From Desulfuromonadales bacterium C00003068 (GTDB taxonomy: Bacteria > Desulfobacterota > Desulfuromonadia > Desulfuromonadales > Desulfuromonadaceae), in NCBI GenBank assembly GCA_001751155.1, contig MAXR01000045.1:807-9979 (forward strand): 9,173 nucleotides of DNA, in the 5' to 3' direction. Below are positions 2,447 through 7,674 of this stretch, piece after piece. The translations under genes and the position numbers were made by a program. Under the pieces are notes generated by a model. The model searched no databases and had not been told where the DNA came from. It saw only the letters and a list, made by a program, of their open reading frames with translations. The number at the start of each line of letters is the position of its first letter. Position 1 is the first letter of the stretch.

Positions 2447-2823
2447 TGGTCGAAGAAGCCCGTAAGCCGGGTCTTGTACCTGATTTTGGTTACCCAATAT
2501 CAGGGGACGATCATTCCTCTAGGACCGCCGTTGCCGACGGCCTCAAGCAGCCAACCCAGAAGCTTCAGGCGGGTAGCCTTCAAGCGCCTCTCTATTTGGC
2601 CTTGCTCCGGATGGGGTTTACCTAGCCCCTGATGTCACCATCAGGGCTGGTGAGCTCTTACCTCACCCTTTCACCCTTACCTGCCAGTGGCAGGCGGTCT
2701 TCTCTCTGTGGCACTAGCCCTGGGGTCACCCCCGGTTCCCGTTAAGAACCATCCTACCCTATGGAGCCCGGACTTTCCTCCCGTTTCTTGCGAAACCGGC
2801 GATCATCTGTGCTTCTTCGACCA
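2447..2823 (-). ncRNA. rnpB: RNase P RNA, bacterial type A
   Basis: This is the catalytic RNA of ribonuclease P, which removes 5' leaders from pre-tRNAs. The ends form a perfect 13-bp P1 helix: TGGTCGAAGAAGC at the 5' end (2823-2811) with GCTTCTTCGACCA at the 3' end (2459-2447). Universal blocks are present on the minus strand: GAGGAAAGTCCGGGCTCC (2780-2763, P3/P4 region), GGTAAACCCC and GAGCAAGGCCAAATAG (CRII/III region), AGAGGAATGATCGTCC (2520-2505), and ACAAGACCCGGCTTACGGGC (2477-2458, P4 3' strand). The span is 377 nt, normal for type A. The exact mature ends are estimated from P1. It begins 33 nt after the zinc-ribbon gene stop, with no clear promoter in the gap, so it may start inside that gene or be processed from a longer transcript. 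Open frames in 2440-2880 are shadows. Confidence 0.98.
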
Positions 2824-4888: not shown

Positions 4889-4965
4889 TGGTGGGCCCAC
4901 CAGGACTCGAACCTGGGACAAACCGGTTATGAGCCGGTGGCTCTGACCAACTGAGCTATAGGCCC
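4889..4965 (-). tRNA. tRNA with CAU anticodon, probably tRNA-Ile2 (lysidine type)
   Basis: A full cloverleaf of 77 nt with encoded CCA. Acceptor GGGCCTA pairs with TGGGCCC (one G-U), the D-stem is GCTC/GAGC, the anticodon stem is ACCGG/CCGGT with loop CTCATAA (anticodon CAU), and the T-arm is CCAGG-TTCGAGT-CCTGG; the discriminator base is A. A CAU anticodon can be elongator Met, initiator Met or Ile2. The initiator is unlikely because position 1 pairs normally (G1-C72) and the three G-C pairs of the anticodon stem are absent. C4-G69 and C5-G68 are both present; these are known recognition determinants of TilS, which makes lysidine in tRNA-Ile2, so AUA-reading tRNA-Ile2 is the better call. Automated tools may label it Met. 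Confidence 0.97.
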
Positions 4966-6070: not shown

Positions 6071-6292
6071 GCCGCCCGACGGCAAACAGCACAAGTCATT
6101 GAATCACCAAAGTATTCTAAAAATCGCCGCTTAACCCACAATGTGGAGCTAATATTTTAAGAACACTTATGCAATCCAAGCACTTGCACTCTTTATCCGC
6201 CTTGGACCCATTGTTCCAGGTTAGAGATAAATTAACACCAAATTTGTGGTGATTTGCAACACGCTCACCGCCATAGCAACGAGGAGGATGTA

Positions 6293-6742
6293 ATGAAAAA
6301 TGTTGGATTACTGCTCATCTTATGTGTTGTGTCGTTGGTTGGTTGTGCGAATCAATCAGGTGATGTTTACAGTCGCTCGCAAGCGCAACGCCAGTTGTCG
6401 GTGTTTTATGGCACGATTTTAGTTGTTGATACTGTCACCATTGAAGGGGCGCAAACAGGGTTTGGTACCGTTTCGGGCGGAGTGATTGGTGGAATTGCTG
6501 GTAACACCGTCGGTGGTGGCCATGGCCGTGCGCTTGCAACCGCTGTTGGCGCGATTGGGGGTGCGCTGATTGGTACTGCGGTGGAAGAGGGTAGTACTCG
6601 AAAAAATGGTGTTGAGATCACCGTCGAACTCGACAGCGGTGAAGTGATTGCGATCGTTCAAGAGGCCGATGATTTTTATGCGGTTGGCGATCGGGTACGA
6701 ATCATTCGTGGTCCTGGTGGCGTCACACGTGTTCGTCAATAA
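6293..6742 (+). CDS. SlyB/Pcp-like glycine-zipper outer-membrane lipoprotein
   Basis: The product has 149 residues from the ATG at 6293, with GAGGAGG (6281-6287) 5 nt upstream. A TTG start 13 codons earlier would spoil the signal peptide. Residues 1-17 are a lipoprotein signal with lipobox LVGC at 15-18; Ala follows the Cys, so sorting to the outer membrane is expected. Residues about 57-95 form a glycine-zipper segment (GFGTVSGGVIGGIAGNTVGG and GAIGGALIGTAVEEG). The last 45 residues (VEITVELDSGEVIAIVQ...VGDRVRIIRG) form the small beta domain seen in SlyB-type proteins. Such proteins stabilise the outer membrane, and some respond to envelope stress. It is close to SlyB in build, but identity with E. 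coli SlyB is not claimed. It probably forms its own transcription unit; no terminator is visible before the next promoter. Confidence 0.86.
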   Translation: MKNVGLLLILCVVSLVGCANQSGDVYSRSQAQRQLSVFYGTILVVDTVTIEGAQTGFGTVSGGVIGGIAGNTVGGGHGRALATAVGAIGGALIGTAVEEGSTRKNGVEITVELDSGEVIAIVQEADDFYAVGDRVRIIRGPGGVTRVRQ

Positions 6743-6796: not shown

Positions 6797-6825
6797 TTGA
6801 CTTTTGCCCATATCGGTTCTATATA
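6797..6825 (+). promoter_or_regulatory. Sigma-70-like promoter of the selenoprotein genes
   Basis: TTGACT (6797-6802, 5 of 6 matches) is followed after exactly 17 nt by TATATA (6820-6825, 4 of 6). Start of transcription would be near 6832, giving a leader of about 46 nt before the ATG at 6879. Confidence 0.65.
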
Positions 6826-6878: not shown

Positions 6879-7223
6879 ATGAAAAAAATTGAGTGGATCT
6901 ATTTCCGTAAGGGATGAGTGTCATGTAAAAAAGCTCAAAAGTTTTTTGAGCAATATACTGTAGAGATCGAGGAGACTGTTGATCCGCGTAAGGAACCTAT
7001 TGATTCTGAAACCGCTTGGCAGAAAATTCTAGGGGCGAAACGGATTGTTGTTGTTAAGGGAAAAGTACTTAAGGATTTGCTTGTTACTGAACGAAACCGC
7101 GAAGAGATTTTAGCAAGTGTGATTGGCCCCTCTGGAAAGTTGCGTGCTCCAACGTTTAAGGTGGGTGATTATTATGTGGTTGGATTTAATGAGGAGATGT
7201 ATGTCACTCAGTTGCAAGAGTGA
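6879..7223 (+). CDS. ArsC/Spx-family selenoprotein with in-frame UGA (Sec13), UxxC motif
   Basis: Read from the ATG at 6879 with GGGGTGA 7 nt upstream, the frame hits TGA at codon 13 (6915-6917) and continues to TGA at 7221-7223, giving 114 residues. Codon 13 falls exactly at the first active-site position of an ArsC-like thioredoxin fold: I-Y-F-R-K-G-U-V-S-C-K-K-A, so Sec13-Val-Ser-Cys16 replaces CxxC. The first strand lies before the UGA, and RAPTFKVGDYYVVGFNE at 89-105 carries the cis-Pro region (P91) and last strands of the fold, so only the readthrough product makes a complete domain. A SECIS-like hairpin follows at the right distance. Likely a cytoplasmic selenol/thiol oxidoreductase; arsenate reduction is possible but not shown. 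A normal gene caller would start at GTG 6918 and lose the active site. The HesB-like selenoprotein gene follows after 62 nt. Confidence 0.93.
6933..6951 (+). promoter_or_regulatory. SECIS-like hairpin of the ArsC-like selenoprotein
   Basis: GCTCAAAA (6933-6940) pairs perfectly with TTTTGAGC (6944-6951) around the loop GTT. The loop starts 23 nt after the UGA and its first base is G, matching the described bacterial SECIS rule (short apical loop 16-37 nt after UGA with a G in its first two bases), the site read by SelB. Confidence 0.8.
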
Positions 7224-7285
7224 TATGGATGATAAGCATAGTATCTGTATAAGATGACTTTTATAACGTGAAAGGAACGAGAAAC

Positions 7286-7588
7286 ATGCTGACCATTACT
7301 GATGAGGCTCGCACTGAGCTGAAAAGTATTTTAGAGCAAAACGATGGTAAATCATTACGAGTGACGATGGCAGGCTTTGGTTGAGGCGGTCCCTCTTTGG
7401 GATTGACTCTGGATGAGTCAACAGATGAAGATAAAATCGTAACTATTAATGAAATTGATGTGTTGCTTGATGCTCAGGTTGTCCGTTTTGCCGACGATCA
7501 AGTGATCCACTACGTACAAGATGGTTTCACTATTACTTCAAAAGAGGGTGGTGGCTGTGGTTCAAGTTGTGGCGGAAGCTGCGGCTAA
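7286..7588 (+). CDS. HesB/IscA-like selenoprotein with in-frame UGA (Sec33)
   Basis: Read from the ATG at 7286 (AAGGA about 9 nt upstream), codon 33 is TGA (7382-7384) and the frame runs on to TAA at 7586-7588, giving 100 residues. The start MLTITDEARTELKSIL is the typical A-type helix, and VTMAGFG-U-GGPSLGLTLDE at 26-44 places Sec where IscA/HesB proteins have their first cluster-binding Cys. The C-terminus has C91, C95 and C99 in a Gly-Ser-rich tail (GGGCGSSCGGSCG), an expanded form of the CxC of IscA. Without readthrough the first half would be orphaned. HesB-like selenoproteins are a known bacterial class. The role is likely Fe-S or metal/selenium handling; the precise function is unknown. 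It is co-directional with and 62 nt after the ArsC-like selenoprotein, and ends before a strong terminator. A normal caller would report only 7397-7588 from a TTG. Confidence 0.94.
7403..7421 (+). promoter_or_regulatory. SECIS-like hairpin of the HesB-like selenoprotein
   Basis: TTGACTC (7403-7409) pairs perfectly with GAGTCAA (7415-7421) around the loop TGGAT. The loop begins 25 nt after the UGA and has G as its second base, which fits the bacterial SECIS rule. A shorter hairpin closer to the UGA (TCCC/GGGA, 7390-7402) may stack below or compete; its loop lies only 9 nt from the UGA and has no G. Confidence 0.75.
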
Positions 7589-7612
7589 CCAAGTGTTCAT
7601 ATCGTTTTAAAC

Positions 7613-7647
7613 AAAAAGAGCCGTCCTATTTAAGGGCGGCTCTTTTT
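7613..7647. terminator. Bidirectional intrinsic terminator between convergent genes
   Basis: AAAAAGAGCCGTCC (7613-7626) pairs with GGGCGGCTCTTTTT (7634-7647) with one G-U pair around a 7-nt loop. The T-run on the plus strand and the A-run on the other side make it work in both directions, ending the selenoprotein unit (+) and the acyltransferase gene (-). Confidence 0.93.
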
Positions 7648-7674
7648 GTTTTGATCTTGTTTATATAAGGACTT

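What the first reader, a model, noticed from the sequence alone, without database searches (positions are those of the whole stretch)
6879..7588. Tandem pair of selenoprotein genes: ArsC-like UxxC protein plus HesB-like protein
Two consecutive genes each need UGA readthrough, and each has Sec exactly at the family's active-site or cluster-binding position. They share direction, are 62 nt apart with no terminator between them, have one good promoter ahead and one strong terminator behind. Each class alone is known from surveys of bacterial selenoproteomes; the two as a dedicated unit suggest a selenium-dependent module, for example a selenol reductase that reduces or loads a Sec-containing A-type carrier. 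The partnership is inference.
Basis: partly seen in the sequence, partly recalled or inferred. Interest (0 to 1): 0.85.

Follow-up and report, generated by a model that had tools for sequence, protein, structure and literature searches.

The report
Paired selenoprotein genes: redoxin plus HesB
Two neighbouring genes in a Desulfuromonas-like bacterium each carry an in-frame UGA that is predicted to be read as selenocysteine; the pair is kept in most but not all members of one bacterial family, probably arose once, and likely makes a small reductase together with the iron-sulfur-carrier-like protein it would keep reduced.

Summary
Window 6879-7223 encodes an ArsC-like UxxC protein (NF041106, over cut-off); 7286-7588 a HesB-like protein with Sec at the IscA Cys35 position; 62 nt apart. 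Both UGAs are almost certainly Sec: they are invariant in family relatives while true stops vary, and covarying hairpins after each fit the bacterial SECIS model. The genome has selA, selB and selD; tRNA-Sec was not found in this incomplete assembly but is in 11 of 14 family members. A promoter-like site precedes gene 1 in 10 of 10 paired genomes. The pair is not a general module: adjacent in 10 of 10 family genomes with both, 0 of 18 elsewhere in the order, 5 of 80 named ArsC-like loci (all this family). Four of 14 family genomes have HesB alone, one with a scar of the lost redoxin. The whole neighbourhood is syntenic in the family, so adjacency alone proves little. Classical A-type carriers are nearly absent from the order: 26 of 27 Pfam matches are Sec-HesB. 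Both families were listed for Desulfuromonas acetoxidans in 2006. The reductase-carrier partnership is plausible but unproven.

The parts
6797..6825 (+). sigma-70-like promoter TTGACT-N17-TATATA, 53 nt ahead of gene 1
   Evidence: same kind of site at 42-53 nt in 10 of 10 paired family genomes; not found by the strict scan
6879..7223 (+). ArsC-like UxxC selenoprotein gene (Sec13), Spx/ArsC-type thioredoxin fold
6915..6917 (+). Sec codon UGA of gene 1
   Evidence: all 56 matches in the order carry an in-frame TGA
6933..6951 (+). SECIS hairpin of gene 1: stem 6933-6940/6944-6951, loop GUU
   Evidence: 73-row alignment A4: 19 cells changed on both sides against 3.1 in shuffles, 0 of 500 as high
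7224..7285 (+). 62-nt gap with Shine-Dalgarno-like GAAAGGA; no terminator here
   Evidence: relative G001 has a terminator-like hairpin in its gap
7286..7588 (+). HesB-like selenoprotein gene (Sec33), IscA fold, Cys/Gly tail C91, C95, C99
7382..7384 (+). Sec codon UGA of gene 2
   Evidence: TGA in 14 of 14 family copies
7388..7404 (+). first hairpin after the HesB UGA (stem 7388-7393/7399-7404)
   Evidence: two Gly wobble bases covary through four pair types (UA 13, CG 5, GC 5, AU 1, broken 3 of 27)
7405..7419 (+). second hairpin, SECIS-type, loop UGGAU (stem 7405-7409/7415-7419)
   Evidence: GC 15, AU 9, broken 3 of 27 at the variable pair; helix 97.8% paired
7609..7651 (+). intrinsic terminator behind the pair
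   Evidence: 19 pairs, T tail

Best explanation
Two selenoprotein genes sit side by side and are predicted to be co-transcribed: a Spx/ArsC-fold UxxC redoxin that likely reduces, or would hand a metal cluster to, a HesB/IscA-fold protein predicted to have Sec at its first cluster-ligand position. Shown by sequence: both reading frames, invariant internal UGAs in the family, covarying hairpins, a conserved promoter-like site, and grouping of the paired redoxins in one clade. Inferred: Sec insertion itself, one mRNA, a single origin of the pairing, and the working relation. Proposed mechanism: in the reduced, anaerobic cell the UxxC redoxin keeps Sec33 and the tail cysteines of HesB in the selenol/thiol state by resolving a Se-S bond (attack by its own Sec13, release by Cys16), so that HesB can bind and pass on an Fe-S cluster or metal. 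The redoxin is an add-on: HesB is kept without it in some relatives. The Sec reading alone I hold at about 0.97; the number below is for the whole chain, working relation included.
For: Both UGAs as Sec. Machinery: selA, selB and selD (itself with a TGA) lie together on G000 contig C21. One promoter-like site ahead of gene 1 in 10 of 10; none of a looser pattern in the 110 nt ahead of HesB in the six of ten paired genomes scanned. Same strand, 33-62 nt apart in 10 of 10 family genomes with both. In G006 a 675-aa gene sits between the lipoprotein gene and the pair, yet the pair stays together. Paired ArsC-like sequences are one clade, support 99/88, in a tree of 82 rows. Folds. Precedent: E. 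coli GrxD supplies clusters to the A-type carrier ErpA (PMC11327457, abstract). The only PF01521 matches in family genomes are the Sec-HesB (11 of 14 matched; in the other three, window genome included, HesB itself falls under the threshold).
Against: In 0 of 18 genomes outside the family that have both are they on one contig; co-occurrence outside the family p 0.18, and 26 of 136 genomes have the redoxin without HesB. 4 of 14 family genomes lack the redoxin, one by a deletion that left HesB in place. The whole block MBL-fold gene, lipoprotein gene, (redoxin), HesB, acyltransferase gene is syntenic in the family, so the kept adjacency is not special to these two genes. In other lineages the redoxin gene sits by semialdehyde-dehydrogenase-type or gyrase genes. 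80 of 136 genomes have no HesB match at E 1e-12. G001 has a terminator-like hairpin between the genes. The tail lacks the Cys-x-Cys of A-type carriers and the model is disordered there.
Confidence: 0.38

Rival explanations
1. Neighbours without a shared task: the ArsC-like gene sits, by one old event, in the slot between the glycine-zipper lipoprotein gene and HesB, and has been inherited or lost since; the proteins have unrelated jobs and share only selenium supply and a transcript.
For: HesB follows the lipoprotein gene in the window and in 13 of 13 other family genomes read, with or without the ArsC-like gene (in G006 with one further gene between); flanking genes on both sides are syntenic too; one clade; no linkage outside the family; scar in G003.
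Against: Order and spacing kept in 10 of 14 genomes across two genera, down to 44% identity to the window's protein, with a conserved promoter-like site and through the insertion in G006.
Confidence: 0.42
2. Metal or metalloid handling: the redoxin and the Cys/Sec-rich HesB tail bind or reduce a soft metal or oxyanion rather than serve Fe-S proteins.
For: Patchy distribution (HesB in 56 of 136, redoxin in 54 of 136); Cys/Gly tail with Sec; Spx/ArsC-type fold.
Against: No arsenic- or mercury-resistance family over its cut-off among the window proteins scanned (6, 10); the redoxin is far below arsenate-reductase cut-offs.
Confidence: 0.15
3. The UGAs are ordinary stops and the genes are decayed or shorter.
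For: tRNA-Sec was not found in this assembly.
Against: Invariant UGA with varying true stops, covarying SECIS hairpins, selA, selB and selD present, tRNA-Sec at 68-72 bits in 11 of 14 family genomes.
Confidence: 0.02

Closest known systems
ArsC family (seleno)protein NF041106 (ArsC-like of Zhang 2006, PMC1794560; the link between the two names is my inference)
   Same: over the curated cut-off, UxxC motif, size and fold
   Different: of the 80 named loci examined, only this family's have Sec-HesB next door
HesB-like selenoprotein (TIGR01911, NF038090)
   Same: Sec in the GFGUGGP motif, IscA fold
   Different: scores under both cut-offs; tail with C91, C95 and C99 where most outer relatives end in C or CC
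E. coli GrxD-ErpA (PMC11327457, abstract and outline seen)
   Same: a thioredoxin-fold partner serving an A-type carrier
   Different: GrxD is a monothiol cluster-binding glutaredoxin; here a UxxC redoxin, no interaction tested
Selenoprotein operons such as grdA-grdB and Prx with SELENOW-like (PMC13188914, passages seen)
   Same: adjacent selenoprotein genes taken to work together
   Different: this pair is not named in the passages seen

Membership tests
NF041106 ArsC_rel_Se_1 | score over curated cut-off 85 bits | tested here: met
   120.3 bits
NF041106 ArsC_rel_Se_1 | UxxC (motif as listed in PMC13188914) | tested here: met
   UVSC, Sec13/Cys16
Arsenate reductase / Spx | curated cut-offs of ArsC and Spx models | tested here: not met
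   TIGR01617 27.7 against 75.05; NF009210 15.9 against 159; NF008107 13.1 against 121
HesB-like selenoprotein | over cut-off of TIGR01911 or NF038090 | tested here: not met
   53.8 against 66.35; 69.6 against 85
HesB-like selenoprotein | Sec in UxGP motif (as listed in PMC13188914) | tested here: met
   UGGP in 14 of 14 family copies
A-type Fe-S carrier (IscA/SufA/ErpA) | fold | tested here: met
A-type Fe-S carrier (IscA/SufA/ErpA) | three Cys ligands, the last two as Cys-x-Cys (T. elongatus IscA C37, C101, C103 in PMC8593673) | tested here: not met
   Sec33 aligns with the first Cys and Cys91 with E. coli IscA residue 99, but the next tail Cys is 95, not 93
A-type Fe-S carrier (IscA/SufA/ErpA) | family cut-offs | tested here: not met
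   TIGR00049 40.8 against 58.8; PF01521 24.7 against 26.3
A-type Fe-S carrier (IscA/SufA/ErpA) | binds and transfers Fe-S clusters | not testable with these tools
   needs protein
bacterial SECIS (model in PMC13188914) | apical loop 3-9 nt with G in the first two bases, stem of 4-16 pairs, 16-37 nt from UGA | tested here: met
   gene 1: loop GUU, 8 pairs, 23 nt; gene 2: loop UGGAU, 5 pairs, 25 nt; the model's energy limit was not tested
Selenoprotein operon | one transcript | tested here: inconclusive
   one conserved promoter-like site and a shared terminator, but a terminator-like hairpin in the gap of G001; no RNA data

The most novel reading that the evidence does not exclude
A selenium-only version of the glutaredoxin/A-type-carrier relay: in an order that has almost no classical A-type carriers, a Sec redoxin and a Sec A-type protein form a two-step hand-over in which both contact residues are selenols.
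Probability: 0.15. Interest if true: 0.7.

Novelty: new member of a known kind. Interest (0 to 1): 0.45.

Why it matters
HesB-like selenoproteins were found in 86 organisms in one survey (PMC5029168, passage), and one was identified by mutagenesis and 75Se labelling in Methanococcus maripaludis, where its function is not clear (PMC11097638, passage). A small system that is naturally paired in some family members and unpaired in others, complete genomes among them, would give a direct test of what Sec does in an A-type fold and whether the ArsC-like redoxin is its reductase. The counts also warn against reading one family's selenoprotein neighbours as a general pathway.

Tried and rejected

Rows dropped: SECIS set A4 holds the window plus 72 of the 73 distinct 48-base segments (80 loci: 6 identical segments, L131, whose best match has no TGA near its start, and L083, whose picked TGA was plainly not the aligned one, left out). 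In A4 79.1% of cells pair; a group of sequences pairs in a register shifted by one. A5 holds 27 of the 29 segments (two identical to L005 left out; the Cys copy L019 was never in it). The named scan kept the best 80 of 213 relatives.

Literature: that the pair is not in print rests and on passages only; the most relevant paper named there (Haft and Tolstoy 2025, on selenoprotein neighbourhoods) is not held, so prior description is not excluded. Seen: passages of PMC1794560, PMC9312934, PMC13188914, PMC11097638, PMC7144353, PMC8593673, PMC1914089, PMC5029168; outline and abstract of PMC11327457.

Full report

Are the UGAs Sec? In the 136 genomes of the order searched, 54 have the ArsC-like gene and all 56 matches contain a TGA (the G103 match has a TAG too). 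HesB is matched in 56 of 136 genomes; 14 of 14 copies in the window's family contain a TGA, and the matches without an inner stop are five in family f7 and one partial match in G053. The true stop codons vary: in the ten paired genomes the ArsC-like gene ends 4 TGA, 4 TAA, 2 TAG; HesB in 14 genomes ends 7 TAA, 5 TAG, 2 TGA. Downstream of each UGA is a hairpin that changes on both sides. Gene 1 (73 rows): 19 cells with double changes against a shuffled mean of 3.1, none of 500 shuffles as high, though sliding the partner by -2 gives 29 such cells at only 53.9% paired. Gene 2 (27 rows): 98.0% of cells paired against 92.2 in shuffles and 20 double-change cells against 6.8, none of 500 as high for either, and at most 52.9% paired when slid; the number of pairs with a double change (2) and of further pair types (6) is not unusual. 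One variable pair of gene 2 joins the wobble bases of two Gly codons and runs through UA, CG, GC and AU. The gene-1 hairpin and the second gene-2 hairpin fit the bacterial SECIS model quoted in PMC13188914 (passage). Folded alone, the window's two stretches are more stable than shuffles at z -2.2 and -1.8. Gene 2 has two neighbouring conserved hairpins after its UGA.

Machinery. G000 has selA, selB and selD together on contig C21, selD itself with one TGA. tRNA-Sec did not reach the gathering score in G000 or G005 in either search; both assemblies are incomplete. In the family 11 of 14 genomes have a tRNA-Sec match of 68-72 bits; G012's 47.9-bit match is a 77-base kind of hit that recurs in other genomes and I do not count it.

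Transcription. A promoter-like site (TTGACA/T, 17-18 nt, TATATA-like) lies 42-53 nt ahead of gene 1 in 10 of 10 paired genomes; a looser pattern found none in the 110 nt ahead of HesB in the six of ten paired genomes scanned, and one (G011) in the four genomes with HesB alone. The patterns were written after seeing the sequences. A terminator follows HesB here. In G001 the gap holds a 7-pair hairpin with a T tail; G002, G006, G007 and G008 also fold a hairpin in the gap, with matching changes on both sides between G007 and G008, but the terminator scan of G008 shows none there. So one transcript is likely in the window's genome, possibly attenuated in some relatives.

Is the pairing conserved? 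Within the family, 10 of 14 genomes have the ArsC-like gene and in all 10 it is directly ahead of HesB. The other four have HesB only. G003 still carries 18 codons like the end of the ArsC-like gene ahead of HesB (L189:5222-5275, 72% identical, E 9e-5; BLASTN to the window's genome E 6e-11): most of the gene was lost and HesB kept. The flanks are syntenic: an MBL-fold gene and the lipoprotein gene precede the pair, or HesB alone, in 13 of 13 other family genomes read, and the acyltransferase gene follows in 11 of 13 (G004 and G010 end or break off before it). In G006 a 675-aa gene lies between lipoprotein gene and pair. Outside the family 18 genomes of 122 have both (15.1 expected, Fisher p 0.18; whole order 28 of 136 against 22.2, p 0.03), and in none of the 18 are they on one contig. 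In the named collection the scan kept the best 80 of 213 loci: HesB of this type follows in 5, all in this family. The paired ArsC-like sequences form one clade (99/88, 82 rows), so one origin fits.

Fe-S carriers. A Pfam search for the A-type family over the 136 genomes gave 27 matches; 26 contain a TGA and only G108 has a classical one, while the same search rings in 9 of 14 control genomes. The Sec-HesB is thus nearly the only A-type protein seen in the order, but 80 of 136 genomes have no match to the HesB profile either. It looks like a specialised, dispensable protein rather than a housekeeping carrier.

How it likely works. From papers: A-type carriers are predicted to bind clusters through three cysteines (PMC8593673, passage), and in E. 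coli the glutaredoxin GrxD supplies the carrier ErpA (PMC11327457, abstract). Inference: the UxxC redoxin reduces a Se-S bond of HesB, or passes it a cluster. Against it: HesB is kept without the redoxin in four family genomes, the redoxin occurs without HesB in 26 of 136 genomes, and the adjacency is part of a syntenic block. I give the partnership chain 0.38 and neighbours without a shared task 0.42; the partnership is kept as the best mechanism because it is the most likely one that says what the two proteins do.

Novelty. Both families are old: Zhang and co-workers listed HesB-like and a distant ArsC homolog among six selenoproteins of Desulfuromonas acetoxidans in 2006 (PMC1794560, passages). 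The 2026 review has a section on selenoprotein operons; the passages seen do not name this pair. It is a new member of a known kind, the selenoprotein gene pair.

Noticed in passing
order-wide: Classical IscA/SufA/ErpA are nearly absent: 26 of 27 PF01521 matches in 136 genomes are Sec-HesB; only G108 has a classical one.
   Followed up: partly
window 7388-7419: HesB has two neighbouring covarying hairpins after its UGA, the first with a wobble-wobble pair through four pair types; the role of the first is unknown.
   Followed up: partly
G031:C1 and G045:C1 (L016, L017): Two Sec-HesB copies in tandem in these genomes.
   Followed up: no
L129, L139, L149: In one clade (L149 is named Desulfobulbaceae) the ArsC-like selenoprotein gene lies near a Cys A-type carrier gene on the opposite strand.
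   Followed up: partly
L084, L088, L090, L116, L124, L130, L134, L146, L148, L150, L153, L155: In 12 of 80 loci, five of them named SAR324, the ArsC-like gene sits just ahead of a semialdehyde-dehydrogenase-type gene (Pfam on L090); argC is my guess.
   Followed up: partly
L081, L085, L091, L092, L097, L105, L107, L112, L136, L138: In 10 of 80 loci the ArsC-like gene sits near DNA gyrase/topoisomerase IV genes (Pfam on L105 and L112).
   Followed up: partly
L009:1378-1431 (L189:5222-5275): Scar of a lost ArsC-like gene in G003, ahead of an intact HesB frame.
   Followed up: yes
L181 5871-7898: In G006 a 675-aa gene (it looks like a signalling protein; no family search run) lies between the lipoprotein gene and the pair.
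   Followed up: no
window 2447-2819 (-) and 4889-4965 (-): RNase P RNA (323 bits) and a tRNA-Met gene.
   Followed up: no
window 6254-6742: Glycine-zipper lipoprotein-like gene (PF05433) ahead of the pair or of HesB alone throughout the family genomes read.
   Followed up: yes
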